64,000 bases of DNA from NCBI GenBank assembly GCA_902779845.1, contig CACZCZ010000002.1, positions 62,001-126,000 on the forward strand. Direction: 5' to 3'. The position numbers were made by a program, and so were the translations under genes. The notes under the pieces are model-generated. The model was not told the origin of the DNA. It was given only the letters and a program-made list of their open reading frames with translations, and searched no databases. Source of the stretch: an uncultured Bacteroidales bacterium (lineage in GTDB: Bacteria > Bacteroidota > Bacteroidia > Bacteroidales > Bacteroidaceae). Each line of letters opens with the position of its first letter. Position 1 is the first letter of the stretch. This document shows positions 187-11,283 of the stretch, one piece after another.

Positions 187-218
187 TTTGAATTTTTCTC
201 CTAATCTTCCTATATTAA
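187..218 (+). promoter_or_regulatory. Island promoter element, copy 1
   Basis: TTTGAATTTTTC starts at 187 and TATATTA starts at 211, 24 nt apart start to start. It lies 31 nt before the ATG at 250. It resembles a Bacteroidota -33/-7 pair, but the -7 box lacks the usual TAnnTTTG form. Confidence 0.7.
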
Positions 219-249
219 CCTAAAGTTTAACCTTTCAAACAAAACTCTT

Positions 250-387
250 ATGAAATTAAGAATTAACAAAGACTCTATAAGTGCTAATCAGTCCAAAGAA
301 GGCATACTTCGCGCTAAAGTTGACGTACTTTTAAGAAAGATTGAGGAAATGAGGGAGGAGCTTGAAGAGTTGAAAAATAAGATTTAA
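250..387 (+). CDS. 45-aa charged coiled-coil-like peptide
   Basis: ATG at 250 opens a 45-codon frame ending at TAA 385-387. The second half is a highly charged helix (RKIEEMREELEELKNKI) with heptad-like spacing of Leu, Ile and Met, so a short coiled coil is likely. No family is recognised. Coding status is supported by the island promoter element 31 nt upstream and by the same layout at the neighbouring island genes. A role as a small binding partner or antitoxin-like peptide would be speculation. Confidence 0.55.
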   Translation: MKLRINKDSISANQSKEGILRAKVDVLLRKIEEMREELEELKNKI

Positions 388-396
388 ACCTCATCT

Positions 397-428
397 TTTG
401 AATTTGCCTCACAGTCTTTCTATATTAT
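397..428 (+). promoter_or_regulatory. Island promoter element, copy 2
   Basis: TTTGAATTTGCC starts at 397 and TATATTAT at 421, again 24 nt apart. The ATG of the 60-aa gene is at 433, only 5 nt after the box, which suggests a leaderless or nearly leaderless transcript. Confidence 0.7.
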
Positions 429-432
429 ATAC

Positions 433-615
433 ATGGAAGTCATCGGTATCATCCTTCTTCTCATCATTGCCTTTGTAGTCCTTGGCCTTCTGGGCTGGGG
501 ACTAAAAGGCATTGGGGTGATCTTTGACTTTCTTTGGGAGGGTTGCACTACGAGCATCGGCTGCCTCTTCTGGGTTGTCATCATCCTACTATTCATCGTA
601 GGACTGGCGCTTTGA
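433..615 (+). CDS. 60-aa double-spanning membrane protein, copy A
   Basis: The protein has two hydrophobic helices (about residues 3-24 and 42-60) joined by a short loop containing FDFLWEGCTTS, so it should be a small inner-membrane hairpin. Residues WGLKGIG and GCLFWVV are kept in the second copy at 10639-10821, which differs at only about five positions. That conservation argues for translation. Two scars of the same gene lie at 2797-2831 and 8661-8723. No family name is recognised. It may be a membrane partner of the adjacent ATPases or a toxin-like hairpin peptide; neither is shown. Confidence 0.75.
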   Translation: MEVIGIILLLIIAFVVLGLLGWGLKGIGVIFDFLWEGCTTSIGCLFWVVIILLFIVGLAL

Positions 616-668
616 AGTCCTGTTTACAAAAATCTGCATATTTGTCGTGTTAAAAAAAACGAACGTGA

Positions 669-700
669 TTTAAATTTTTCTGGCATTGTGTCTATATTGT
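669..700 (+). promoter_or_regulatory. Island promoter element, copy 3
   Basis: TTTAAATTTTTC starts at 669 and TATATTGT at 693, 24 nt apart. The ATP-binding protein gene starts at 726, 25 nt after the box. Confidence 0.7.
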
Positions 701-725
701 GTTTGTTATGTAAATTGAATGCAAT

Positions 726-1568
726 ATGTACTACTTACACAATTTTCAGCCCTACATGGATAGCAAGCATCTCTATCCTTGGCGTGTCATCTATCCAATG
801 CAGTTAGAACACATAGAGTTTGCTCCCATCACCATTTTCTATGGTAACAACGGTTGTGGAAAATCCACACTCTTAAATGTTATTGCAGAGCGCATCGGAA
901 TAAAAAACAAAACGCAGGGAAATAGCAATGAGTATTTTGAGAACTATGTGAAGAAATGCACATATTCAGGTGATGACGAGATGCCAGAAGACAGCGCTTT
1001 CATCCGTAGTGAGGACATTATGGCAGGCATAACCAAGAGACGCGAAAGGTTTGCCCGAATGAAAGCAGAATTGCTGAATGGAAAAATGAGTAAGGATATT
1101 AAGGATTATGGAGTTAGCACAAGACTATATCAAAAAGCGCTGACGGCCCCTGACGAAGTAGATCCTTCTGAATATGCTAGGCTGTCGAGATTATCCGATT
1201 TTGCCAGCACCCGCTCTGCATTAGCATCGGGCAGCGTAGATTTTATGTCGAATGGCGAGAAGGCTTTGGAGTTCTTTAGGGATCATTTGTTTGAAGATAC
1301 ACTCTATTTGCTTGACGAACCTGAGAATTCGATGGCACCTGCCTATCAGCAGGAACTGGCCAGAGAAATCTCGCTCTTGGCATATCGTCTTCATAGCCAA
1401 TTCATCATTGCTACCCATTCGCCATTTATGCTTTCAATAGAACATGCCAGAATCTATGATCTGGATGCAAGGCCGGCACGAATGCGGGAGTGGTACCAAT
1501 TAGAGAATATGCAGACATACTACCAGCTATTCAAGCGGTTTGAAAAAAGATTCGAAGGGAACCATTGA
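726..1568 (+). CDS. ABC-type/AAA_15-like ATPase (COG3910-like)
   Basis: A 280-aa soluble ATPase with the ABC/SMC-like head fold. Walker A is GNNGCGKST at residues 40-48 (Lys46), a signature-like SNGEKAL lies near 175-181, Walker B is LYLLDEPE with Asp197-Glu198, and the switch histidine is in ATHSPF (His231). There is no nuclease (TOPRIM) domain, unlike full OLD proteins, and the size matches stand-alone predicted ATPases of this type. Such proteins often act as sensors or motors in defence and stress systems. The substrate is unknown. It has its own island promoter and lies between two small island genes. Confidence 0.85.
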   Translation: MYYLHNFQPYMDSKHLYPWRVIYPMQLEHIEFAPITIFYGNNGCGKSTLLNVIAERIGIKNKTQGNSNEYFENYVKKCTYSGDDEMPEDSAFIRSEDIMAGITKRRERFARMKAELLNGKMSKDIKDYGVSTRLYQKALTAPDEVDPSEYARLSRLSDFASTRSALASGSVDFMSNGEKALEFFRDHLFEDTLYLLDEPENSMAPAYQQELAREISLLAYRLHSQFIIATHSPFMLSIEHARIYDLDARPARMREWYQLENMQTYYQLFKRFEKRFEGNH

Positions 1569-1650
1569 TCCTGTCTGAAAAAGTTGAACGATTTATGAAA
1601 ATCTCTGATGATGTGACTAAATTAGTAAAGAATCATTGACAATAATCACC

Positions 1651-1932
1651 ATGCAAGACTGGAGCAAATATATTGAGATGCCTTATAAAGAGGTGCTGGC
1701 GGAACTGATAGCAGAGGGCTATCAGGTAGTGGATGACAGCCTCTTTGCTGGATATAGAAATACAGAACTGCAAAAGGATGACATCAAGATCCAATTGCTT
1801 TGCGATCCTTTTGATATGGATGACTTCGAGGAGAAAGAAAGATCAGAAGAAGTATTCAGCTTAGATGATTCCGAATGGGTTGTTGAAGATGTCTTTGAGA
1901 ATGGAGAATCATATATAGAGGCCAACTGGTAA
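1651..1932 (+). CDS. Small acidic island protein, MQDWSKYIE family
   Basis: The frame is open from 1636, but the start is set at ATG 1651 because a second copy at 10837 begins with exactly the same MQDWSKYIEMP. The resulting 93-aa protein is strongly acidic, with runs such as DDFEEKERSEE and EDVFENGES, and has no signal peptide or membrane segment. No family is recognised. The acidity and size would fit an immunity or antitoxin protein, but this is only a guess. It lies 82 nt after the ATPase stop with no clear promoter of its own, so it may be co-transcribed. Confidence 0.7.
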   Translation: MQDWSKYIEMPYKEVLAELIAEGYQVVDDSLFAGYRNTELQKDDIKIQLLCDPFDMDDFEEKERSEEVFSLDDSEWVVEDVFENGESYIEANW

Positions 1933-1948
1933 AAAAGTCACCCTGATT

Positions 1949-1980
1949 TTTGAATTTTTCTCCAATAGTTACTATATTAT
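1949..1980 (+). promoter_or_regulatory. Island promoter element, copy 4
   Basis: TTTGAATTTTTC starts at 1949 and TATATTAT at 1973, 24 nt apart. It precedes the HAD-sigma fusion gene (ATG 2008) by 27 nt, so the sigma-like gene itself carries the element. Confidence 0.75.
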
Positions 1981-2007
1981 CATCGAAAACCAATATAAAC
2001 GTTAAAT

Positions 2008-2778
2008 ATGAAACGAGTATTTATTGACATGGACAATGTGCTGGTGGACTTCCAGTCGGGACTCGACCAGGTGAGTGAAGAAACGAAAGCGGCATACGCT
2101 GGCCGTTTGGATGAGATTCCGGGGCTGTTCGCCAAGATGAAGCCAATGCCTGGGGCCATAGAAGCTGTGCATGAGCTGCAGAAGCATTACGACCTGTTCA
2201 TCCTCTCTACGGCGCCGTGGAGGAATCCTTCAGCGTGGTCGGACAAGGTGGAGTGGGTGACGAAATATCTTGATGACGTGTTCCACAAGCGGCTCATCAT
2301 CTCGCACCGCAAGGATCTCTGCCAGGGTGATTATCTGATTGACGACCGTGGGAAGAATGGCACAAGTGAGTTCGGTGGAAAATGGATTCAGTTTGGTTCT
2401 GAGCAATTCCCTGATTGGGAGAGTGTGCTCAAATATCTGAGCAGTCGTAGATTAGATGAATATATGATAGAAATTGGTAGTTATGATTTGTTGACTCTGG
2501 AAGAAGAGTTGACATTGGCCAAGGCCATACAACAGAAAGGACCTGACTGCGAAGAAGCAGAACGTCTGGTAAAAGGTTACTTGCGATTTGTAGTTAGCGT
2601 AGCCAATCAGTATCAGAATAAAGGGTTGACGTTCGAAGAACTGATAGAGGTTGGAAACGAAGGGTTAAAAGAGGCTGCTGTGAAATACGAACCGAATGCC
2701 GACAGTAAGTTCATCCGCTTTGCCGTTCCGTTGATCCGTCAACACATCCTGCAAGCCATTGAATCGAAGGCTTTATAA
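2008..2778 (+). CDS. HAD 5'(3')-deoxyribonucleotidase-like domain fused to a truncated sigma-70 region 1.2-2.4
   Basis: Residues 1 to about 147 match the NT5C-type 5'(3')-deoxyribonucleotidase branch of the HAD superfamily. Visible parts are DMDNVLVDF with Asp7 and Asp9, STAPW, and the HRKD...DYLIDDR end. Residues 149-256 read like a Bacteroidota housekeeping sigma factor from region 1.2 through region 2.4 (YLRFVVSVANQYQNKGL, GNEGLKEAAVKYE, FIRFAVPLIRQHILQ). The protein stops there, so regions 3 and 4 are missing. In region 2.4 the two tryptophans that help open the -10 element are replaced by Pro241-Leu242, and the preceding Tyr is Phe. It could bind core polymerase as an odd sigma, an anti-sigma-like decoy or a nucleotide-responsive regulator. 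The domain assignment is firm by eye; the function is inference. Confidence 0.85.
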   Translation: MKRVFIDMDNVLVDFQSGLDQVSEETKAAYAGRLDEIPGLFAKMKPMPGAIEAVHELQKHYDLFILSTAPWRNPSAWSDKVEWVTKYLDDVFHKRLIISHRKDLCQGDYLIDDRGKNGTSEFGGKWIQFGSEQFPDWESVLKYLSSRRLDEYMIEIGSYDLLTLEEELTLAKAIQQKGPDCEEAERLVKGYLRFVVSVANQYQNKGLTFEELIEVGNEGLKEAAVKYEPNADSKFIRFAVPLIRQHILQAIESKAL

Positions 2779-2796
2779 AATCTCCGCATCAATGTT

Positions 2797-2831
2797 TTTT
2801 TAGTCCTCGGCCTTCTTGGCTGGGGACTAAA
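2797..2831 (+). pseudogene. Scar of the 60-aa membrane-protein gene
   Basis: Thirty-five bases match the middle of copies 433-615 and 10639-10821 and would encode LVLGLLGWGLN in the matching frame. Nothing of the flanks of that gene remains, so this is a leftover fragment downstream of the fusion gene. Confidence 0.7.
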
Positions 2832-2873
2832 TGTTATAGAAAGTGTTAACAAATGATAAAAGGCAGGGCGGTT

Positions 2874-2905
2874 TTTGAATTTTGGGACGAATGCAACCAT
2901 ATTAT
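2874..2905 (+). promoter_or_regulatory. Island promoter element, copy 5
   Basis: TTTGAATTTTGG starts at 2874 and CATATTAT at 2898, 24 nt apart. One box position differs from the consensus. A 31-codon frame starts at 2958. Confidence 0.6.
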
Positions 2906-2957
2906 AATACGCATAAAGTAAAAAGTAAAAGGTAAAAATTAAAAGATTTACTATCGT

Positions 2958-3053
2958 ATGACGACCCATCTTATGACCACTTTAGAAACAGTTATATTCA
3001 TATTGGGGTGGAGTACCATGATTGGTATCTTCGATTACCTTGAAAGTAAATAA
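2958..3053 (+). CDS. 31-aa single-spanning membrane peptide (tentative)
   Basis: ATG 2958 to TAA 3051-3053 encodes 31 residues with one hydrophobic segment (TVIFILGWSTMIGIF) and a polar end (DYLESK). It lies 52 nt after island promoter copy 5 and before copy 6. A second ATG at 2973 is also possible. Small hydrophobic peptides of this size can be type I toxins or membrane regulators, but nothing proves translation here. Confidence 0.4.
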   Translation: MTTHLMTTLETVIFILGWSTMIGIFDYLESK

Positions 3054-3111
3054 ACGACATTCCATAATATGTCGTAGATTGAGAAGTTTTTTGAAAAAAG
3101 TGGAGGTGAAC

Positions 3112-3143
3112 ATTAAATTTTTCTGGTGATGGTACTATATTAT
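3112..3143 (+). promoter_or_regulatory. Island promoter element, copy 6
   Basis: ATTAAATTTTTC starts at 3112 and TATATTAT at 3136, 24 nt apart. The element and the leader after it (to about 3173) are near-identical to 11002-11064, so this whole start region is duplicated. Confidence 0.7.
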
Positions 3144-3175
3144 GTTTGTAATCCCTAAAAAATGATTATGAACTT

Positions 3176-4861
3176 ATGACAAAGAAAGTAGAGACGAAAG
3201 TCGTGAAAAGAACGAAAGTAGAGAAACAAATGACGCTGCTGCGAGCCATTGAGCGCATTGTAGATGTGTCGAAGGACTCCAAGCTGAAGGCCGAGGCCAA
3301 AGCAGATATGGCAGATGAGGTGCGCTATGTTGCTGAGCGCTACGGCATCACCGAGCGGCAGGCAATCTTGTTCTGCGTATGCATGGAACGAGGCCCGCGA
3401 CGCGTGGATTACGACGACCTGGCCAGCCACCTGGATGTCAGCAATATCCGCATCCTTAGCTATGCCGAGGACATCGATGCGCTGGTGCGCCGCCGCCTGC
3501 TGCGCTACCGCGATGCGAAGGATGAAGACGAGTTCGACATCCCACAGCCCGTCATCAAAGCCTTGAAGCACAACGAGGTGTATGAACTGCCAGCACGTAC
3601 GGGATTGGACTGCGCAAGCCTCTTCGAAATACTTGACGAGTTGTTCGAGGACCTGAGCGACGATGCCATCACGCCCAATGACCTCATCAGAGAAATCAAC
3701 ACGCTTTTCCAAGATAATCCCCAGGTGTCTTTCGCCAAGCAGGTCAAGGAACTCAGCCCTGGCTCGCAGCAAGATAAATTACTGTTGCTGTTCTTCTGCC
3801 ATCGGCTGGTGAACAAGGATGATGACGACATCCGCTTTGGGCAGATGGAGGACTGCTTCGTCAACTCTGCCGCTTTCATCAATGCCAAGGGGCTTCTGCG
3901 AAGCGGCGAGCACCCGCTGATGCAGAAGAAACTCATCGAGCACCGCTGCGAAGACGGCATCGCTGACACCACTCGCTACAAACTCACCGAGCAGACCAAG
4001 CGCACGCTGCTGGCCGAGATGAAGATCAACACCAGCGAAGAGAAGTTGGCAGATGTCATCAAGGCCAAGGACCTGAAAGCGAAAGAGATGTTCTATGTCG
4101 AAGAGAACCGGAAACAGGTGACAGAGCTGAAATCGTTCCTCGCTCCCGAGAAATACAATGAGATACGCGAGCGGATGCAGAAGACGGGCTTCCGCACCGG
4201 TTTCGCCTGCCTGTTCTATGGTGGCCCCGGCACAGGCAAGACAGAGACAGCATACCAGTTGGCACGCGAGACCGGGCGCGACATCATGATTGTCGATGTA
4301 CCGCAAATCAAGAGCAAATGGGTGGGCGACTCGGAGAAGAACATCAAGGCGCTGTTCGACCGCTACCGCGAGCTCGTGAAGAAGAAAAGCGCCGAGGGGG
4401 CTGCCCCTATCCTACTCTTCAACGAAGCCGACGCCATCATCGGCATCCGCAAGCAGGGAGCACAGAGCGCTGTAGATAAGATGGAGAACTCCATCCAGAA
4501 CATCATCCTGCAGGAGATGGAGACGCTGGACGGCATCATGATTGCCACCACGAACCTGACGCAGAACCTGGACAGCGCCTTCGAGCGCCGCTTCCTCTAT
4601 AAAATCAAGTTCGAAAAGCCCGATGCCACCGTGCGCCAGCACCTCTGGCAATCGATGATGCCCACGCTCAGCGATGCCGACGCCCATATCCTCGCCACCG
4701 GCTACGATTTCAGCGGCGGACAGATTGAGAACATCAGTCGCAAGGCCACCATCAACGCTATCCTGCACGGCGACGACAGCAACAGCCTCAGCCAGCTCAC
4801 CGCCTACTGCAATGCCGAACGTCTGGACGGTCAAGCCCCCTCCCGCAGGATTGGATTCTGA
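3176..4861 (+). CDS. AAA+ ATPase with N-terminal helical/winged-helix-like region
   Basis: A 561-aa soluble protein. The first ~320 residues are helical and contain a winged-helix-like stretch near residues 60-120. The AAA+ module follows: Walker A GGPGTGKT at 349-356 (Lys355), a VGDSEKNIKALF stretch typical of classical AAA proteins, Walker B LLFNEAD with Asn416-Glu417 in place of the usual Asp-Glu, a sensor-1-like ATTNL and an arginine-finger-like FERRF. It probably remodels or unfolds a protein partner. The start at 3176 overlaps the stop of a short frame beginning at 3162, so translation may be coupled. The tail CNAERLDGQAPSRR recurs at 11289-11350, a remnant of a second copy. The target is unknown. 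Confidence 0.85.
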   Translation: MTKKVETKVVKRTKVEKQMTLLRAIERIVDVSKDSKLKAEAKADMADEVRYVAERYGITERQAILFCVCMERGPRRVDYDDLASHLDVSNIRILSYAEDIDALVRRRLLRYRDAKDEDEFDIPQPVIKALKHNEVYELPARTGLDCASLFEILDELFEDLSDDAITPNDLIREINTLFQDNPQVSFAKQVKELSPGSQQDKLLLLFFCHRLVNKDDDDIRFGQMEDCFVNSAAFINAKGLLRSGEHPLMQKKLIEHRCEDGIADTTRYKLTEQTKRTLLAEMKINTSEEKLADVIKAKDLKAKEMFYVEENRKQVTELKSFLAPEKYNEIRERMQKTGFRTGFACLFYGGPGTGKTETAYQLARETGRDIMIVDVPQIKSKWVGDSEKNIKALFDRYRELVKKKSAEGAAPILLFNEADAIIGIRKQGAQSAVDKMENSIQNIILQEMETLDGIMIATTNLTQNLDSAFERRFLYKIKFEKPDATVRQHLWQSMMPTLSDADAHILATGYDFSGGQIENISRKATINAILHGDDSNSLSQLTAYCNAERLDGQAPSRRIGF

Positions 4862-4866
4862 CGAAG

Positions 4867-4905
4867 AAATCTCATGCGACATCACAGCCGCATGAGATTT
4901 CTTGT
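4867..4905 (+). terminator. Rho-independent terminator after the AAA+ gene
   Basis: A perfect 12-bp stem (AAATCTCATGCG at 4867-4878, its complement at 4889-4900) with a 10-nt loop starts 6 nt after the stop codon and ends in a short T-rich stretch. Confidence 0.75.
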
Positions 4906-5000
4906 TCCTAGTTCAAAACCTTTTTCGCACTTTTTCCCTTATTTTGCTCTTTTCTCTTCTTCTCTTTTCATTTTATTATTGCACTTTTTGTGCCATTTCT

Positions 5001-5031
5001 TTTGTCCGAATCAGATTATTCGTTACTTTTG
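5001..5031 (+). promoter_or_regulatory. Ordinary Bacteroidota promoter for the 5.2-8.5 kb operon
   Basis: TTTG at 5001-5004 and TACTTTTG at 5024-5031 fit the usual -33/-7 pair. Bases 4906-5204 between the terminator and the next gene hold this promoter, a T-rich stretch and the inverted repeat at 5114-5165, but no convincing gene. Confidence 0.6.
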
Positions 5032-5113
5032 TGGCGTGATATCGCTCATGATACGTCAAGAGCCCTTACCTAACGAAACATCCTGAAGCCCCAAATACAT
5101 GAAAAGAACTAAC

Positions 5114-5165
5114 TAATAGCCTATAATAGGAAGATTCCGAAAATCCTTAAAAGAGTAGGCTATTA
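5114..5165 (+). repeat. Inverted repeat in the leader of the zinc-ribbon gene
   Basis: TAATAGCCTA at 5114-5123 and TAGGCTATTA at 5156-5165 are perfect inverted copies 32 nt apart. They lie in the presumed 5' leader, 40 nt before the start codon, and could form an operator or an RNA hairpin. Confidence 0.5.
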
Positions 5166-5204
5166 TTAAGAAGTATCAAAATAAAAACTAAATAAATTAA
5201 GCGT

Positions 5205-6290
5205 ATGTATTCAGAACAATTAGAAACCCTCATCAAAAATGTCCTTGCAGATGGGGTTATTACAGACAAAGAACGTGCTGTACTACATAAGAAGGCTGAG
5301 GCTGAAGGCATAGATGTTGATGAAATCGATGTCTATATTGAGGGAGAACTGGACAAGATTCGTAACGAACAGCAAAAGGTAAAGTCGCAAGTTTGTAAAT
5401 GTCCTTCATGCGGAGAGATTATTAATGTTCTAGAAGGCGTCTGTCCAAGTTGCGGTCACATAATGACAGTAGATAAAAATGATTTATTAGAAATATTAGA
5501 AAATTTAGAATCGTGCCTCGCAGACTTGAAAGGTTCGACAGACGATCCTGATAAAAAGATAGCATTAGTAGAAAAGCACAAAAGGAAGGCTAAAATGCTA
5601 TATGGAGATAATCAAAAGGTAAAATATCTCCTGAATGAAATTGATGTAGAATTGGCAACACAAAGGAAGTCGTGGAAGAAGAAGTTCATAAAAAGAAAAA
5701 TGACCAAATTCTGGTGGGCAATTTCTCTTATATTCATTGTGGTAGCATACTTTATAGGTATGTTCTGCTATCACACAGTTTTACAAATTGAAGTCAAATA
5801 CGAGACGACGAAGTTTATTAAGCAGATAGAATCCTTGGAAGAGCCAACTCCCCAGAACATTGAAAACGTATATCAGGCCTTTAAAGACTTCAAGAATAAC
5901 GATAATATAAGAGAAATACACAATCCTTGTAATTGGTTGGGATGTGATTATCTACAATGGAATTGGGGTTATACATGTCCTGTACAAGCCACAATGTGGC
6001 ATGGAAAAGAGAGTATAGCAAATAAACTTAAAGCATACGGACGTAAGGTTGCTCGTGCGTACATAGAAAAGTATAAACTTGATGAACAGATAGCCCGTAA
6101 AACCGCCCACATAGAAGATGAAGTTTATAATCCAGACGAACAAAAAAAATACTATGCTCATTTTGGAGTGGCGACGGATTCTGAAAGAAAAAAATATGCG
6201 GAACTTTCAAGAATGTTAATACCCATAAAAGACATTATTCAAGAATTCTGTGGCTTTAGTAGTGGTAGCATGTCTGACTTTTTTGAATAA
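5205..6290 (+). CDS. TerB-like/zinc-ribbon single-pass membrane protein
   Basis: A 361-aa protein. Residues 1-55 (LADGVITDKERAVLHKKAEA) look like the short acidic helical repeat seen in TerB-type and related Bacteroidota proteins. A four-cysteine zinc ribbon follows (CPSC pairs at Cys66/Cys69 and Cys80/Cys83; Cys64 is nearby). After a coiled segment comes one membrane helix at about 169-191, and the C-terminal ~170 residues would lie outside the cytoplasm. Function unknown. It heads a plus-strand run with the SPFH and GYF_2 genes, which suggests membrane surveillance or envelope stress. Confidence 0.7.
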   Translation: MYSEQLETLIKNVLADGVITDKERAVLHKKAEAEGIDVDEIDVYIEGELDKIRNEQQKVKSQVCKCPSCGEIINVLEGVCPSCGHIMTVDKNDLLEILENLESCLADLKGSTDDPDKKIALVEKHKRKAKMLYGDNQKVKYLLNEIDVELATQRKSWKKKFIKRKMTKFWWAISLIFIVVAYFIGMFCYHTVLQIEVKYETTKFIKQIESLEEPTPQNIENVYQAFKDFKNNDNIREIHNPCNWLGCDYLQWNWGYTCPVQATMWHGKESIANKLKAYGRKVARAYIEKYKLDEQIARKTAHIEDEVYNPDEQKKYYAHFGVATDSERKKYAELSRMLIPIKDIIQEFCGFSSGSMSDFFE

Positions 6291-6365
6291 ACATAGTGCA
6301 TAACCGACTTCTTAAAGTAGGCTCAAAAATGAAAGAGAGAAACACGTATATTAACAATTCACATC

Positions 6366-7715
6366 ATGGGACTATTCAGTAGAGGAAAGAACGGTGGAAT
6401 GATGAATGTCATTCGCTGTGACGAAGAAGAATATATTGTGTGGAAATGGCGGCCTGAAGGACAGGACGTGAATTCCACAAGTAGAGAAAACAGCATCCGA
6501 TATGGCAGTTCGCTACGTGTGAAGGATGGCGAAATGGCTGTGTTTGTCTATAAGCAAAAAGGTGGGCAGACACAGGACTTCATCATGGGACCATACGATG
6601 ACACTATCAAGACTGCCAACTTCCCTGTGCTCAGTAGCATAGTGGGTATGGCGTTTGGTGGGGAGTCACCTTTCCAAGCAGAAGTGTATTTCATCAATTT
6701 GCAGAGTAACAACCAACTGCGCTTTGGCGTGCCCTTCTTTGATGTATTCGACCCGCGTCTGCCTGATCATGGTGTGCCAATGGCTGTACGCGGAACGATG
6801 ACTTTCAATATCACCGATTATCTGAACTTCATCAAATTGAACCGTCTGGTAGACTTCAACCAAGATCAATTCATGAAGCAGATAAAAGATGCTTTGACGA
6901 AGTATGTAAAGGGAGTCGTCCTGAATGTGCCCCGCGAAATGGGAATACCTGTGGTGCAGATGGAGACGCAGATATTAAACATCAATGCAAAAATTGAGGC
7001 ATTCCTTAAACCCCGCATTGAAGGAGACTTTGGTGTAAACCTGAAAGCTTTCGATATAGGCGCGCTGGAGATTGATAAAGATAGTCCTTATTATAAAGAA
7101 CTACGTCACTTGACAGCAGAGAATACAGGAAAGACGATGGATGCCCAAACCGATACCAACATCAAAAACCTGCAAGATACTCAGCAAATCAATGCCGCCA
7201 ACATGGAAGAAACGCTTCGCATACAGCGCGAAGAGATGCAAAGGGCACAACGTCTGCAGACAGAAACCAACTTCATGGGAGCTTTCGGAATGGAGCAACA
7301 AGCCGAGATTCTCAAGACAGGCGCTCAGAGCCTTGGCCAAATGGGAAACATGGGCGGTGGAGGCGGAGGCACCAATCCAGCAGGTATGATGACAGGCATG
7401 ATGGTAGGTGGCTCTTTAGGTCAACAGATGGCAGGCATGATGCAGAACATGGGGCAGCATATGCAGAATGCCATGAATACACCTCCGCCTGTTCCCAATG
7501 TGCAGTATTATATTTCCTTCAACGGTGCTCAGGCAGGTCCCTTCACCATCCCCAAACTGACAGAGATGGTGCAAAGTGGACAGATGACTGCACAAACCTA
7601 CGTATGGAAACAGGGTATGGCAAACTGGGAATTGGCAGGTAATGTGCAGGAACTTGCTGCGCTATTCACAACGCCAGGTAACACACCTCCACCTCCTCCA
7701 CCACCAAACATATAA
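6366..7715 (+). CDS. SPFH-domain protein with C-terminal GYF_2 domain (YdjI-like)
   Basis: 449 aa. The first ~260 residues match the YdjI-type SPFH (flotillin/prohibitin-like) family, including an N-terminal GLFSRGKNGG start and a long SPFH core. A helical stretch follows, then a Gly/Met-rich linker (about 325-365) and a GYF_2 (DUF4339) domain at about 379-434 with the typical YYISFNGAQAGPF and VWKQGMANW signatures. SPFH proteins of this type assemble at membranes and in Bacillus are tied to the phage-shock response; the GYF_2 part probably binds a partner. It ends in a Pro-rich tail and is 30 nt from the next gene. Confidence 0.85.
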   Translation: MGLFSRGKNGGMMNVIRCDEEEYIVWKWRPEGQDVNSTSRENSIRYGSSLRVKDGEMAVFVYKQKGGQTQDFIMGPYDDTIKTANFPVLSSIVGMAFGGESPFQAEVYFINLQSNNQLRFGVPFFDVFDPRLPDHGVPMAVRGTMTFNITDYLNFIKLNRLVDFNQDQFMKQIKDALTKYVKGVVLNVPREMGIPVVQMETQILNINAKIEAFLKPRIEGDFGVNLKAFDIGALEIDKDSPYYKELRHLTAENTGKTMDAQTDTNIKNLQDTQQINAANMEETLRIQREEMQRAQRLQTETNFMGAFGMEQQAEILKTGAQSLGQMGNMGGGGGGTNPAGMMTGMMVGGSLGQQMAGMMQNMGQHMQNAMNTPPPVPNVQYYISFNGAQAGPFTIPKLTEMVQSGQMTAQTYVWKQGMANWELAGNVQELAALFTTPGNTPPPPPPPNI

Positions 7716-7745
7716 TAATATACGAACCTTAAATAATAGACAGTT

Positions 7746-8096
7746 ATGGACGATATGAGTTGTTCCTACATTGACCGATTGGTAGATTTCGGTCTTGGTA
7801 TGGGAGTTGCCAACCAGATGGTAGGCATTATGAACCAGTATATGCGCACAATGGACATCCCAGGTTCTATCAAAAGTATGCCCAAACCTCTTGCGCAAAT
7901 GTACTATGTTGCTATTGACGGACGTGCCGTAGGCCCCCTTAACGATAGCGAAATGGCAAACATGATATATATGAAGCGAGTAAACAAGGATACTTTAGCA
8001 TGGATGCCAGGCATGACGGCATGGAAACCTATTGAACAGGTACCTGAGATACTGAAGTTCGTAGTTCTGGCACCACCGGCATTACCTAACCCTTAA
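7746..8096 (+). CDS. GYF_2 (DUF4339) domain protein
   Basis: 116 aa with a short N-terminal helix region and one GYF_2 domain at about residues 53-105 (YYVAIDGRAVGPL, AWMPGMTAWKPI). It lacks the SPFH part of its upstream neighbour, so it looks like a separate adaptor. It lies 30 nt after the SPFH gene and 11 nt before the membrane protein, which points to one operon. GYF_2 domains usually mediate protein contacts near membranes; the partner is not known. Confidence 0.8.
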   Translation: MDDMSCSYIDRLVDFGLGMGVANQMVGIMNQYMRTMDIPGSIKSMPKPLAQMYYVAIDGRAVGPLNDSEMANMIYMKRVNKDTLAWMPGMTAWKPIEQVPEILKFVVLAPPALPNP

Positions 8097-8107
8097 ACCA
8101 TACGATT

Positions 8108-8458
8108 ATGAAAGCCAACATATTTCTTACACTTATCAGCCTGATTCTTGCAGGTTTGATAGGTTATTGGGTGTTCAGCAATGCAGAAGGGAAGGAGCAG
8201 GATATGCTGTGCGGTATCTGCAGTACTGTTTGTTTCCTTGCGACACTAATTCCTGCTATAGGTCTACGTTACGAATCTGACAGGATTGGAACCAACATAC
8301 GAGTGTTATCTGGTTTGTTTTTCATAGCCTTCCTTATCAGTCACTTTTATTTTGCCAACTATGGTATAAAAATGCCGTTGTATGTGATATTAAATGGTAT
8401 TCTTCTAGTTGTTTATCTTGGAATATTTTATAAGATTCAGGGTTTAAAGGACATATAA
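8108..8458 (+). CDS. Four-helix integral membrane protein
   Basis: 116 aa with four hydrophobic segments at roughly residues 5-23, 36-56, 67-84 and 92-110 and short loops. There is no recognisable motif. It is the fourth gene of the tightly spaced run that starts with the zinc-ribbon protein, which suggests a membrane subunit of that module. Function unknown. Confidence 0.75.
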   Translation: MKANIFLTLISLILAGLIGYWVFSNAEGKEQDMLCGICSTVCFLATLIPAIGLRYESDRIGTNIRVLSGLFFIAFLISHFYFANYGIKMPLYVILNGILLVVYLGIFYKIQGLKDI

Positions 8459-8467
8459 AGGAAACTA

Positions 8468-8743
8468 ATGGCTGTAGTAGGAATCATAGGTAAGGTCAGA
8501 AGATGCTTTCTTCTGTTCACCCTGCTATGTTCGAATTGCGCTATCTTACCTACAGCGGCACAAGCAACTACAGAGATTGATATCCCACTCTCCATAGGGA
8601 AGAAGGCTGAGCAGATTCTCTATCGACATGGATATGTGGTATCGTACAATAAAGATACTAGAACTCGGTTGCATCTTCTGGGTCTTCATGGCATTTCTAT
8701 TGCTCATAGGATTGGCTATGTAGAAAAAGAAAGATCTCTTTAA
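8468..8743 (+). pseudogene. Truncated DNA/RNA non-specific endonuclease fused to a gene scar
   Basis: The frame begins with a signal peptide ending near AAQA. It continues with IGKKAEQILYRHGYVVSYN, the start of the mature part of DNA/RNA non-specific (NUC/EndA-type) endonucleases. After DTRT the similarity stops abruptly, before the catalytic region. From 8661 the DNA instead matches, in another frame, the 3' end of the 60-aa membrane-protein gene. The catalytic domain is missing, so this is a broken gene that may still make a 91-aa secreted fragment. Confidence 0.65.
8661..8723 (+). pseudogene. 3' scar of the 60-aa membrane-protein gene
   Basis: In the frame starting at 8661 the DNA encodes GCIFWVFMAFLLLIGLAM and a stop. 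It aligns with GCLFWVVIILLFIVGLAL at the end of the copies at 433-615 and 10639-10821. The 5' two thirds are absent and replaced by the endonuclease fragment. Confidence 0.7.
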
Positions 8744-8770
8744 ATTTCTCTTCGAAAGTAACTGTATTAA
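8739..8770 (+). promoter_or_regulatory. Island promoter element, copy 7
   Basis: TTTAAATTTCTC starts at 8739 and TGTATTAA at 8763, 24 nt apart. The nuclease gene starts 19 nt after the box. This is the most diverged copy. Confidence 0.55.
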
Positions 8771-8789
8771 GAACCATAAGAAAATAATT

Positions 8790-10310
8790 TTGTTAGAAAG
8801 AAACATTTTGGGTATTAAGAATAGCCCTATTTATCAAGAGTTAAAAGGCTACTATAGTCAATCTACAATTTTCAGTGCTTTAGGCATTGAGCGTAACGAG
8901 AACAGACATAGCGCATTCTTATGTTGGTTACTTGATCCGAAGTCAGACCATCAATTAGGCGTTGAACCCTTGAAAAAGTTCTTGGCTTTATATGCAGTGG
9001 TCAACGAGAAAATAGATGATGAATTAAGAGCTGCTTTTATCACAGGGCGTTACAATCTGGAAGATATCCAAATGGAAAGAGAGTTGTCGCTATCAAGATT
9101 CTGTGATGATGAAAGTCGTTTGCATTTGAATGAAAAGCAGAAGAGACTTGATATTTGGTCAGAGTTCTCAGTGTCAATTCCTGACAGTAGTGAACCTCGC
9201 AAGATTGCCTTGGTTATAGAGAATAAGATTTATAGCAAAGAGGGTAAGAGAGAGAACATTTATCAGACAGATGTTTACCATGACTGCTTGAGTAAGTATT
9301 ATGCAGACCAAACTTTGCTGGAAGTATTCCTTACTCCTAATAATGAAGGAGCAAACTGTCCGGATTTCCTTCATCTTACGTATCAACAACTATTAGATGA
9401 TGTGCTGCTTCCTTTGGCGTCAATGGCAAAAACGGAACATGCTAAGCTCTTTCTCAATGACTATATACGTAATCTTGGGAAACCTGCCATGAATGATGAC
9501 GATGATGAGAAAAAAGTAAAGACTTATTCCATTTTGGCTACCTCAGAACTTGAACGAAAGAAATTGCAGCAATTACTGGATACTGAGGGGATGAAAACCA
9601 TTATAGAGAAAGCTCTGTTTGCTGTCTATGGAGAACAAGCAAAGAACGTTATTGGCAAAGAGAGAATGAAACGGAATAAGGAGAGTATAAAGACATACGA
9701 GACCATAGTGCTAACAGAATTTTGGAATGACAATACACATATTCTGAAAGCAATGCTGTATAACCTTGAGATATTCCCTGAAGGCAAGAAAGAAGCAATA
9801 GAAAAAATATTCAAGGAAAGCAATCGGGATACTAGCAAATATGTCGTTGAAAAGAAGTGTGGGGACCAATGGGTCGTTGCAGACGCAAATTATAATAGAC
9901 CTCTTGCCAAAGGGCGTGCTGCTTGCGTGTTCTTTGCCCAATGGATGGCTATGAATGAAGAAAAATTCACATTGCAACAAGTACGAGATGTTTTTCCTCT
10001 CACTCTCAATGAGTATTATAAGAATAGCAGTTGGAATTTCATAGATACGCTTATCTTTGGAAGCGATTCTGAATCATTAATGGCCAATGCCGTCAACATA
10101 GCAGGGCAACAGATAGAGCTTGCTAGCGACAAATGGGATTTCTATCCAATAAAATATACCAACAATGGTAAATGTGGCTGGGGATACCTCAAAGACGGTA
10201 ATTATGCCATTATGCCAAAAATGTGGCGTAAAGAAGACTTCCAACGACTACTTAATCACATCGATGCCCATCCCGAACTCTTTAGCGGATTACGTATCCG
10301 GCAGATCTAA
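8790..10310 (+). CDS. PD-(D/E)XK nuclease-family protein (PDDEXK_4-like)
   Basis: 506 aa. The N-terminal ENRHSAFLCWLLDP block, then RLDIW with Asp121 and the ENK motif (Glu144-Lys146), give the PD-(D/E)XK active site. A Gln/Tyr-containing helix follows in the usual place, and about 340 residues of unrecognised sequence come after. The start is a TTG at 8790: no ATG lies upstream in frame, and conserved sequence begins within ten codons. Proteins of this kind are predicted nucleases often found in defence islands. Its own island promoter and location support a role in the accessory system, but the target is unknown. Confidence 0.8.
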   Translation: MLERNILGIKNSPIYQELKGYYSQSTIFSALGIERNENRHSAFLCWLLDPKSDHQLGVEPLKKFLALYAVVNEKIDDELRAAFITGRYNLEDIQMERELSLSRFCDDESRLHLNEKQKRLDIWSEFSVSIPDSSEPRKIALVIENKIYSKEGKRENIYQTDVYHDCLSKYYADQTLLEVFLTPNNEGANCPDFLHLTYQQLLDDVLLPLASMAKTEHAKLFLNDYIRNLGKPAMNDDDDEKKVKTYSILATSELERKKLQQLLDTEGMKTIIEKALFAVYGEQAKNVIGKERMKRNKESIKTYETIVLTEFWNDNTHILKAMLYNLEIFPEGKKEAIEKIFKESNRDTSKYVVEKKCGDQWVVADANYNRPLAKGRAACVFFAQWMAMNEEKFTLQQVRDVFPLTLNEYYKNSSWNFIDTLIFGSDSESLMANAVNIAGQQIELASDKWDFYPIKYTNNGKCGWGYLKDGNYAIMPKMWRKEDFQRLLNHIDAHPELFSGLRIRQI

Positions 10311-10348
10311 TGCCAAAGGAGAAGTATATGAAAGAAGTTGCGGAATGA

Positions 10349-10380
10349 TTTGAATTTTTCTTGCTAACTTCCTATATTAT
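10349..10380 (+). promoter_or_regulatory. Island promoter element, copy 8
   Basis: TTTGAATTTTTC starts at 10349 and TATATTAT at 10373, 24 nt apart. The next ATG (10408) is 27 nt after the box, the same distance as at the HAD-sigma gene. Confidence 0.75.
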
Positions 10381-10407
10381 AGAACAACCTAATAAAACAT
10401 CATTGTT

Positions 10408-10638
10408 ATGACACAGATAAAGATTTTCAATGGGACTACCTATGAAGGGTCTAGCGCTGGTCCTTCAGCTCCGACTATTGACAGCCTTACCGAAAAAGTC
10501 AATGAGTTTCTTGCAGAAAACGATGGCAAGATAACAATTAAAGACATTAAATACACTGTTCAAAGTCCAAATCCTCATCAAATATTAAATCTTGGTATTA
10601 AGGTGTGGACTATCATGCTGATATATGAAACCTTCTGA
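10408..10638 (+). CDS. 76-aa island protein of unknown function
   Basis: A 76-residue protein with a polar N-terminal half (SSAGPSAPTIDSLTEKVNEF), a mixed middle (DGKITIKDIKYTV) and a hydrophobic end (LGIKVWTIMLIYE). No family is recognised. Its TGA is followed directly by the ATG of the 60-aa membrane protein (10639) with no gap, so the two should be translated together. The promoter element 27 nt upstream supports expression. Confidence 0.65.
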   Translation: MTQIKIFNGTTYEGSSAGPSAPTIDSLTEKVNEFLAENDGKITIKDIKYTVQSPNPHQILNLGIKVWTIMLIYETF

Positions 10639-10821
10639 ATGGAGGTTATCGGTATCATCCTACTGCTCATCATTTCCTTTATAGTCCTTGGCCTTCTGGG
10701 CTGGGGACTGAAAGGCATTGGTGTGATCTTTGACTTTCTGTGGGAGGGTTGCACTACGAGCTTCGGTTGCCTCTTCTGGGTTGTCACCATCCTACTGCTC
10801 ATCGTAGGACTGGCGCTGTGA
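10639..10821 (+). CDS. 60-aa double-spanning membrane protein, copy B
   Basis: Nearly the same 60 residues as 433-615, with a handful of conservative changes (for example IISFIVL for IIAFVVL and WVVTILLLIVGL for WVVIILLFIVGL). Both hydrophobic helices and the FDFLWEGCTTS loop are kept, so the two genes are recent paralogues under some selection. Here it is not driven by its own promoter element but follows the 76-aa gene without a gap. It is followed 15 nt later by the broken MQDWSKYIE copy. Confidence 0.75.
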   Translation: MEVIGIILLLIISFIVLGLLGWGLKGIGVIFDFLWEGCTTSFGCLFWVVTILLLIVGLAL

Positions 10822-10836
10822 ACGAATTAAAGAATT

Positions 10837-10940
10837 ATGCAAGACTGGAGTAAATATATTGAAATGCCTTTGATTCCGAATGGATTGTTGAAGATGTCTT
10901 TGAAAACGGAGAATCGTGCTTTGACCGAAGCGGACGGTAA
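10837..10940 (+). pseudogene. Deleted copy of the MQDWSKYIE gene
   Basis: It begins MQDWSKYIEMP like the gene at 1651 and then jumps to bases matching 1866 onward (DSEWIVEDVFENGES in the original frame). About 181 bases, equivalent to 1685-1865, are missing, which shifts the frame at the junction. The original reading frame would end at TAA 10938-10940. Confidence 0.75.
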
Positions 10941-11001
10941 AACCTTCAAGCTGATGACTGAGAAACAGGAACAGCTATTTTTGGAAAAAGTGAAGGTGAT
11001 C

Positions 11002-11033
11002 TTTAAATTATTCTGGCGATGTAACTATATTAT
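11002..11033 (+). promoter_or_regulatory. Island promoter element, copy 9
   Basis: TTTAAATTATTC starts at 11002 and TATATTAT at 11026, 24 nt apart. The next 30 nt repeat the leader of the AAA+ gene (TATGTTTGTAATCCCTAAAA), so this was the start of a second AAA-type unit. Confidence 0.7.
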
Positions 11034-11061: not shown

Positions 11062-11283
11062 ATGAACTCTACCACCATCACCACCCACAACACCAAAAAA
11101 TTTAACAAAATCCTCTCACTCCTCACCACCCTCCACCCTCATCTCTCTATCCTACCCTCTCCTACCACCAACTCCATCACCTTCTTCACCAACTCCACCC
11201 TCCAATCCAACCTCCTCTTCTCCCATCTCACCAACCTCCTTCATCTTAAACCCCTTCATCCCTCCTACGCTCTTGCAGCGTAG
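11062..11283 (+). other. Open frame over a 204-nt G-free tract (11065-11268)
   Basis: From 11065 to 11268 the + strand contains no G at all. An ATG at 11062, 28 nt after an island promoter, opens 73 codons dominated by Thr, Ser, Leu, His, Pro and Asn, with a TAG at 11281-11283. Without G only TAA could stop a frame, so openness alone is weak evidence of coding. The tract ends in a 7-bp hairpin (CTACGCT at 11265-11271, AGCGTAG at 11277-11283). It sits exactly where the body of a second AAA+ gene should be. It could be a real low-complexity ORF, a structured or G-rich antisense element, or decayed filler. Confidence 0.5.

What the first reader, a model, noticed from the sequence alone, without database searches (positions are those of the whole stretch)
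187..11033. Nine copies of a private promoter-like element with an invariant 24-nt register
TTT(G/A)AATTTTTC and TATATTAT occur at 187/211, 397/421, 669/693, 1949/1973, 2874/2898, 3112/3136, 8739/8763, 10349/10373 and 11002/11026, always exactly 24 nt apart. Nearly all sit 19-52 nt before a start codon. Core genes in the same window use the ordinary TAnnTTTG box instead. The long conserved A/T block after TTTG and the missing TTTG in the -7 box suggest recognition by a different sigma or activator.
Basis: seen in the sequence. Interest (0 to 1): 0.85.

Follow-up and report, generated by a model that had tools for sequence, protein, structure and literature searches.

The report
Shared phage-like promoter of bacterial islands
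A gene island in a gut bacterium related to Prevotella drives its genes from many copies of one unusual promoter that the rest of its chromosome does not seem to use, that related bacteria carry in similar islands, and that a few large phages also carry, which suggests that mobile DNA keeps its own style of control signal.

Summary
Nine sites with exact 24-nt register lie at 187-11033, and they are the only matches (3 mismatches or fewer) in the held 2.92-Mb genome, against 0 reversed-pattern controls. A weight matrix trained on other genomes recovers all nine plus a tenth at 1594. The element looks like a promoter: 88 of 102 sites lie within 70 nt upstream of an ATG-started ORF, most often 24-29 nt. 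It occurs in 27 of 251 family genomes and in excess in 4 of 9 viral contigs chosen for an exact match, once before a deoxyribonucleotidase 44% identical to the island's own.

Its geometry is that of host promoters, and two of 28 rpoD upstream regions have a near-identical -33 block. The -7 box differs: TATATTAT instead of TAnnTTTG. I favour a mobile variant of the sigma-ABfr promoter, read by host RNA polymerase. A dedicated sigma is possible: the island encodes sigma regions 1.2-2, fused to that nucleotidase, under an exact element. But three genomes with 3-8 elements show no such piece. What reads it is untested.

The parts
187..218 (+). element 1 (TTTGAATTTTTC-N12-TATATTAA), 31 nt before the ATG of a 45-aa ORF (250-387)
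   Evidence: 28.2 bits
397..428 (+). element 2, ATG at 433 only 4 nt downstream; a start at element position 37 would make the mRNA leaderless (inference)
   Evidence: (25.5 bits)
669..700 (+). element 3, before the AAA_21-type ATPase gene 726-1568
   Evidence: 39.4 bits
   Evidence: 17.7 bits
1949..1980 (+). element 4, exact consensus, 27 nt before the nucleotidase-sigma gene
   Evidence: 61.4 bits
2008..2778 (+). NT5C-type deoxyribonucleotidase fused to sigma-70 regions 1.2 and 2 only (256 aa, no region 3 or 4 match)
   Evidence: Pfam NT5C 1.9e-16, Sigma70_r2 7.3e-9, Sigma70_r1_2 1.3e-6
2874..2905 (+). element 5 (weak), 52 nt before a 31-aa peptide ORF (2958-3053) that has a relative under an element in L041
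   Evidence: (21.8 bits)
3112..3143 (+). element 6, 32 nt before the AAA+ ATPase gene
   Evidence: 45.4 bits
3176..4861 (+). AAA+ ATPase (561 aa), the tested gene most tightly associated with the element across genomes
   Evidence: Pfam AAA 2.7e-24; 9 of 12 element genomes against 0 of 24 controls at 62% identity or more
8739..8770 (+). element 7 (weak), 19 nt before the PDDEXK_4 nuclease-like gene 8790-10310 (TTG start)
   Evidence: 23.3 bits
10349..10380 (+). element 8, exact consensus, 27 nt before a 76-aa ORF (10408-10638)
   Evidence: 42.8 bits
11002..11033 (+). element 9, 28 nt before a 73-aa ORF ending in YALAA (11062-11283)
   Evidence: 46.6 bits

Best explanation
The element is a promoter class carried by mobile DNA. 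It has the geometry of the Bacteroidetes primary-sigma promoter: TTTG about -36 to -33, a 20-nt gap, TAnnTT at about -12 to -7, and a purine at about +1. Its -33 block is close to invariant (TTTGAATTTTTC) and the last two bases of the -7 box are changed from TG to, mostly, AT. I think host RNA polymerase with sigma-ABfr reads it. The near-ideal -33 block would make up for the missing TG, and the AT-rich stretch just before the start would give a different regulation from core promoters. Islands of accessory, partly defence-like genes in gut and rumen Prevotella-type bacteria share it, I think because genes with this promoter are exchanged between islands, and some large phages carry it before their own genes. 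Shown: register, privacy, distribution, coupling to start codons, occurrence in viral contigs, and the difference from core promoters. Inferred: that it is transcribed, by sigma-ABfr, how it is regulated, and that it moves by gene exchange.
For: Own genome: 9 of 9 matches in the island, 0 controls. Family: 79 hits in 27 of 251 genomes against 5 reversed-pattern hits; 64 of the 79 in 12 genomes with 2 or more. Placement: 88 of 102 sites followed by an ATG-ORF within 70 nt, against 16 of 102 in the opposite direction and 1023 of 3000 random positions; C or T at position 36 (46 of 63) and A or G at position 37 (53 of 63). Shared geometry: after TTTG-N20-TAnnTT the next two bases are TG in 21 of at least 30 strings in 400 kb of this genome, and AT in 52 of at least 113 in the relatives' island loci (the call lists the eight commonest). 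Upstream of rpoD in L206 and L211 lie TTTGAATTTTAG and TTTGAATTATTC with TATATTTG at the same register. G183, G141 and G128 (8, 6 and 3 elements) show one sigma-70-type match each, of full length. In one phage contig (G402) strings with TTTGAA-N18-TATATT end in TG (4), AA (4), AT (2) and TA (2) among others, so canonical and variant ends occur side by side.
Against: No transcript data. Of 68 core boxes none has 9 or more of 12 matches to the -33 block, and 23 of 28 distinct rpoD upstream regions score below 0 with the element matrix, so this is not a common host promoter. Conserved bases in the spacer (GTNAC before the -7 box) are not explained by sigma-ABfr contacts as I know them. The genomes without a sigma piece are held at 90-98% completeness, so a reader could be missed, and the search would not find extracytoplasmic-type sigmas.
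Confidence: 0.5

Rival explanations
1. A dedicated factor reads the element. The island's region 1.2-2 sigma pieces (as in the nucleotidase fusion) melt TATATTAT, with -33 contacts supplied by another protein, in the manner of the split sigma of phage T4 late transcription.
For: Sigma piece under an exact element in the window. Fourteen ORFs of the island loci match a profile of the piece, one of them fetched twice. In 6 of 12 element genomes such a piece lies in a fetched island stretch. The altered bases fall where region 1.2 would contact DNA (recalled).
Against: G183, G141 and G128 carry 8, 6 and 3 elements and no such piece was found. The tryptophan pair of region 2.3 is kept in 6 of 12 aligned pieces and replaced in the window protein. 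Short sigma-like matches occur in 3 of 24 control genomes (G010, G110, G152), and those and several others have no element at 10 bits or more in the fetched stretch.
Confidence: 0.22
2. The element is a phage promoter captured by defence-like genes, so that a phage-encoded factor switches the island on during infection.
For: The same element in large viral contigs; a phage nucleotidase and the island nucleotidase both lie under it; island and neighbouring genes match defence profiles, some only in part.
Against: No phage factor identified; no sigma piece found in the 400 kb sampled from four viral contigs; phage hosts unknown. The -7 ending is mixed in three of the four contigs and mostly AT only in G407. 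Lak phages of Prevotella give 12, 15 and 19 hits against 10, 7 and 7 controls. Twelve viral loci with ATPase relatives and one with a nucleotidase relative have no element.
Confidence: 0.15
3. An island-encoded regulator, possibly the AAA+ ATPase or a partner, binds the conserved -33/spacer block and activates host polymerase.
For: Close AAA relatives (62% identity or more) in 9 of 12 element genomes against 0 of 24 controls. Of 15 distinct close AAA genes in fetched loci, 11 have an element directly upstream and 3 have one about 240-330 nt upstream with a small ORF between.
Against: The model (mean pLDDT 72) matches Vps4/FtsH/proteasome-type unfoldases; its N-terminal part is of low confidence, so a DNA-binding domain there is not excluded. 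G207, G187 and G128 lack a close AAA. A second copy in this genome has no element, nor do four more distant relatives (35-52%) directly upstream.
Confidence: 0.08
4. The element is a recombination or cassette boundary site rather than a promoter.
For: Repeated before unrelated genes of differing islands.
Against: Preferred distance to start codons, orientation coupling, promoter-like geometry and occurrence in phages. No tRNA gene in the window or five fetched loci; integrases were not searched for.
Confidence: 0.03

Closest known systems
Bacteroidetes primary-sigma (sigma-ABfr) promoter, TTTG (-33) / TAnnTTTG (-7) (PMC7366714, passages read)
   Same: TTTG position, 20-nt gap, TAnnTT core, upstream A-rich stretch
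   Different: -7 box ends mostly in AT instead of TG; -33 block close to invariant over 12 nt; conserved GTNAC in the spacer; not found before core genes of this genome
B. thetaiotaomicron PM2 promoter (PMC7366714, passages read)
   Same: a non-canonical promoter class in the phylum
   Different: PM2 is near-palindromic, with elements centred at -10 and -30, before chromosomal genes enriched for oxidative stress response; no island restriction is described in the passages read
F. psychrophilum motifs SM1-SM6 (PMC9723704, passages read)
   Same: SM1-3 are variations around TAnnTTTG; SM5 (TAnnTTGY) is also a -7 box variant
   Different: no TATATTAT class in the passages read (logos not seen)
T4 late transcription (gp55 sigma-like protein; PMC2988020, search listing only; details recalled)
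   Same: region-2-type sigma without region 4, AT-only promoter core
   Different: T4 late promoters have no conserved -35 block (recalled); here the -33 block is among the strongest parts, and the sigma piece is not always present
MzaA, sigma-70 protein of the MZA anti-phage system
   Same: a sigma region in a defence-associated protein (partial match)
   Different: far below the NCBIfam cut-off (48.3 against 800 bits); only the sigma part matches

Membership tests
Canonical sigma-ABfr promoter | TTTG at -33 | tested here: met
   5 of 9 sites have TTTG, 3 TTTA and 1 ATTA; G at position 4 in 52 of 63 aligned sites
Canonical sigma-ABfr promoter | -7 box TAnnTTTG | tested here: not met
   0 of 9 sites end in TTTG; AT is the commonest ending in the relatives' island loci
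Canonical sigma-ABfr promoter | spacing as in host promoters | tested here: met
   host TTTG is most frequent at offset 24 (8 of 68) and 23 (6 of 68); all nine sites at 24
Canonical sigma-ABfr promoter | transcribed by the sigma-ABfr holoenzyme | not testable with these tools
   needs transcription assays
Alternative-sigma regulon | promoter class restricted to a gene set and absent from core genes | tested here: met
   own genome: all 9 matches in the island, none at 9 of 12 among 68 core boxes; in relatives 15 of 27 genomes have a single hit that was mostly not followed up
Alternative-sigma regulon | cognate sigma present wherever the promoter is | tested here: inconclusive
   no truncated or second sigma-70-type protein found in G183, G141, G128, but genomes are incomplete and extracytoplasmic-type sigmas were not searched
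Full sigma-70 factor (window 2008-2778) | region 2 present | tested here: met
   the profile of such pieces (A1) matches solved sigma factors
Full sigma-70 factor (window 2008-2778) | regions 3 and 4 present | tested here: not met
   no Pfam hit; the protein ends 5 residues after the profile match
Phage promoter class | repeated before genes in phage genomes above chance | tested here: met
   G400, G402, G403: 22, 26 and 15 hits against 3, 6 and 2 controls, contigs having been chosen for one exact match; 22 strong sites in 340 kb of them, 16 with an ATG-ORF within 60 nt, 0 in shuffles

The most novel reading that the evidence does not exclude
Bacterial islands of defence-like genes are wired to a phage promoter class. 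A factor brought or changed by an infecting large phage (or a sigma piece derived from one, now encoded by the island and fused to a phage-type nucleotidase) switches on the whole island, giving an infection-triggered regulon shared across species.
Probability: 0.15. Interest if true: 0.92.

Novelty: new variant of a known kind. Interest (0 to 1): 0.68.

Why it matters
A promoter class restricted to accessory islands and shared with large phages would be a simple handle on how mobile genes keep their own regulation in new hosts. It gives a sequence signature for finding such islands, and a testable link between phage transcription and bacterial defence-like genes. The region-2-only sigma pieces, some fused to a nucleotidase, raise the question of what minimal sigma domains do outside a full sigma factor.

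Tried and rejected
Mini-sigma as the necessary reader: weakened, because G183, G141 and G128 carry 8, 6 and 3 elements and show only one, full-length sigma match each, while short sigma proteins in other genomes have no element in the fetched stretch.

AAA ATPase as DNA-binding activator: the predicted fold matches unfoldases and the N-terminal part is of low confidence. It is kept as a low rival because of its distribution.

Lak megaphages as the phage source: 12, 15 and 19 hits against 10, 7 and 7 controls, so at most a mild excess. Of the other records in that call, an unnamed 462-kb phage (LR756500.1) gave 28 against 8, not followed up; Vibrio phage KVP40 2 against 1; Pseudomonas phage PaBG 0 and 0; MT835492.1 0 against 2; two viral contigs with a nucleotidase or ATPase relative 0 and 0. 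The 12 viral ATPase loci and the one viral nucleotidase locus have no element at 8 bits or more.

tRNA-linked integration: no tRNA gene in the window or in five fetched island or flank loci.

Searches with a wrong pattern: the element search in 399 genomes and the first viral scan had one N too many. Their counts are not used; replace them. The looser pattern gives about as many reversed as forward matches in most genomes and is not used.

Literature: the listings (titles and abstract starts) name no such promoter class. I read passages of PMC7366714, PMC12596196 and PMC9723704 only; no paper was read whole.
Full report
What was claimed.

Is it there. Yes. All nine sites and the register are confirmed. 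Two of nine match both consensus strings exactly; four have one mismatch, one has two and two have three. Dinucleotide shuffles of the window gave none in 100. In the held genome (2.92 Mb in 47 contigs, 85.9% complete) the nine sites are the only matches with 3 mismatches or fewer; all are on one strand, and the reversed pattern gives none. A weight matrix trained on 65 non-redundant sites from other genomes puts the nine window sites on top (21.8 to 61.4 bits), then a tenth site at 1594 (17.7 bits), then a gap to -2.3. The 20 kb upstream of the window has no site (best -1.2). In the island loci fetched from relatives (both strands, some loci overlapping), gap 12 gives 101 sites, while the other gaps from 6 to 18 give 0 to 19.

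Is it a promoter. The placement says so. Of 102 distinct sites scoring 20 bits or more (window included), 88 have an ATG-started ORF of at least 40 codons within 70 nt downstream; 49 of the 88 lie at 24-29 nt. Looking in the opposite direction 16 of 102 do, and among random positions in the same loci 1023 of 3000. In 63 aligned sites (3 mismatches or fewer, window included) position 36 is C or T in 46 and position 37 is A or G in 53, as expected for a start 6-7 nt after TATATT. No transcript data are available, so initiation itself is inferred.

How it compares with core promoters. In about 450 kb of this genome outside the island (400 kb fetched plus the rest of the window), 68 TAnnTTTG boxes lie 8-80 nt before 184 starts of ORFs of 130 codons or more with at least 70 nt of non-coding upstream sequence, against a mean of 5.6 (largest 14) in shuffles; the box is mostly TA[CT][CT]TTTGC. 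TTTG lies exactly 24 nt before the box in 8 of 68 and 23 nt before in 6. None of the 68 has 9 or more matches to TTTGAATTTTTC at any offset from 18 to 30. After TTTG-N20-TAnnTT the next two bases are TG in 21 of at least 30 strings in the 400 kb, and AT in 52, TG in 16, of at least 113 in the relatives' island loci, which include their flanks (eight commonest endings listed). So geometry and an upstream A-rich stretch are shared; the -7 ending and the strength of the -33 block are not. The -33 block is not wholly foreign: of 28 distinct rpoD upstream regions, two, in relatives that carry the islands, read TTTGAATTTTAG (L206) and TTTGAATTATTC (L211), followed at the same register by TATATTTG; 23 of the 28 score below 0 with the element matrix. 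In another relative (L144) an element-like site ending in TATATTAA lies upstream of rpoD (32.7 bits), with an ordinary TAATTTTG box nearer to the gene. In this genome the same -33 block with TAnnTTTG gives 29 hits with 3 mismatches or fewer, 6 of them island sites, against 14 for the reversed pattern: a modest excess.

Where else it occurs. In 251 genomes of the family (this one included) the refined pattern gives 79 hits in 27 genomes, against 5 for the reversed pattern; it finds 6 of the 9 sites here, so it under-counts. Twelve genomes have two or more hits, holding 64 of the 79. In ten of the twelve they lie on one or two contigs; in G116 and G231 they are spread over five and four. The other 15 genomes have one hit each, most not followed up. 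Relatives found through the nucleotidase-sigma protein (51 loci, many from rumen and gut MAGs by title) include such clusters, but many nucleotidase relatives have no element: of 59 gene starts in the fetched loci, copies of one locus included, 18 have one directly upstream.

What lies under it. In the window: an AAA_21-type ATPase, a deoxyribonucleotidase fused to sigma regions 1.2 and 2, an AAA+ ATPase, a PDDEXK_4 protein and several small ORFs. Profiles of known or candidate defence proteins match some of them, mostly over part of the protein: PtuA/AriA, IetA and PDC-S26. The flank just upstream of the window holds AbiE and AbiL pairs. Low GC marks an island from about 11 kb upstream of the window to about 11 kb inside it, with higher stretches in between. 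Element-driven genes differ between islands. Of the genes I tested, the AAA+ ATPase is the best common denominator: at 62% identity or more in 9 of 12 genomes with two or more elements, and in 0 of 24 control genomes that I picked for having no hit (three have weaker matches, best 42%). Of 15 distinct close ATPase genes in the fetched loci, 11 have the element directly upstream, 3 have one about 240-330 nt upstream with a small ORF between, and 1 has none: the second copy in this same genome, on another contig. Four more distant relatives (35-52%) have none directly upstream.

The sigma pieces. Fourteen ORFs in the island loci match a profile of the piece; two of them are the same gene fetched twice (L066 and L180). 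Most end within a few residues of the match; three (L045, L050, L183) have a longer tail. The profile matches solved sigma factors. The tryptophan pair of region 2.3, used for melting (recalled), is kept in 6 of 12 aligned pieces and replaced in the other six, the window's among them, while positions in the part that docks on the polymerase (recalled) are among the nine invariant ones. In 6 of the 12 element genomes a piece lies in a fetched island stretch (G000, G021, G207, G187, G116, G190). G063 and G235 have short sigma-like proteins elsewhere without an element nearby, G231 has two full-length ones, and G183, G141 and G128 have only one match, of full length. Three of 24 control genomes also have a short match. 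The pieces are therefore neither necessary for nor diagnostic of the element, as far as these incomplete genomes can tell.

Phages. An exact scan of viral contigs gave 12 stretches. In 7 of the 12 an ORF starts within 34 nt; in 5 (three of them copies of one sequence) there is none (which reads the ORFs only to the locus end). A 410-kb contig has the element 6 nt before the ATG of a nucleotidase 44% identical to the window's. In the 9 records searched whole, hits with 3 mismatches or fewer against the reversed pattern are 22 to 3 (410 kb), 26 to 6 (193 kb), 15 to 2 (86 kb), 32 to 1 (301 kb, a related variant TTTGAACTT...CATATATTAT), 3 to 1 (126 kb), 1 to 1 (31 kb) and 1 to 0 in three short ones. 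In sampled pieces of the first three contigs 22 strong sites all lie on one strand, 16 of them within 60 nt before an ATG-ORF, and a shuffle of each piece gives 0; most ORFs of these pieces also lie on that strand (361 of 442). The -7 ending after TTTG-N20-TAnnTT is mixed in these three contigs (for example AA 8, AT 8, TG 6 in the 193-kb one) and clearly AT only in the 301-kb one (12), so the phage class is looser than the island class. Nucleotidases of this family are common in large phages, for example 61% identity in Vibrio phage KVP40, but KVP40 has no excess of the element and Lak phages at most a mild one. The hosts of the four contigs are not known to me.

Most likely mechanism. A variant of the primary-sigma promoter that travels with mobile DNA, read by the host enzyme (0.5). 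A dedicated reader built on sigma pieces (0.22), a phage-provided reader (0.15), an island activator (0.08) and a recombination site (0.03) are the rivals. The conserved bases within the spacer (GTNAC before the -7 box) are the main feature the first explanation does not account for.

Novelty. Two published promoter maps in the phylum, of which I read passages, describe TAnnTTTG, PM2 and SM1-SM6 but, in those passages, no TATATTAT class. My literature searches, limited to the open library and judged from listings, named none. I rate it a new variant of a known kind.

Noticed in passing
window 2008-2778; L041-L045: A phage-type deoxyribonucleotidase fused to sigma regions 1.2-2; close relatives (86-90% identical to the window over their length) exist without the sigma part (L046, L049, L050), so the fusion looks modular.
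   Followed up: partly
window 11062-11283; L042, L044, L048, L049, L086, L174, L176, L191: A family of 71-83-aa proteins; 7 of 9 aligned end in ALAA like the ssrA degradation tag (tag recalled). In several loci it lies next to the AAA+ ATPase gene.
   Followed up: partly
window 433-615 and 10639-10821: Two near-identical small membrane-protein-like ORFs (184-nt repeat, 92%), only the first with an element directly before it; a similar 51-nt piece lies at 2781-2831.
   Followed up: no
window 2958-3053; L041 after 9090: A 31-aa peptide (MTTHLMTTLETV...) under an element, with a 26-aa relative under an element in another genome.
   Followed up: no
L173 14591-19399 (just upstream of the window): AbiL-type and AbiE-type defence pairs beside the element island, without elements.
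   Followed up: partly
L247 (contig C23 of the same genome): A second copy of the AAA+ ATPase (68% identical) without an element; a TACTTTG string lies upstream.
   Followed up: partly
L249 8102-10942: In another genome the element, the AAA+ ATPase and a full-length primary-type sigma gene lie in a row; that genome has a second full-length sigma.
   Followed up: no
contig G407 (L172, L275, L349-L351): A 301-kb viral contig with 32 hits (1 control) of a related promoter, TTTGAACTT...CATATATTAT, perhaps a main promoter class of that phage.
   Followed up: no
LR756500.1 (L318, 462-kb unnamed phage): 28 hits of the element pattern with 2-3 mismatches against 8 reversed-pattern hits, and two places matching the sigma piece.
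   Followed up: no
phage records such as OR849212.1 and OR846618.1: Records named as Listeria or Enterococcus phages match the Bacteroidetes-type sigma at about 50% identity and may be mislabelled or contaminated.
   Followed up: no
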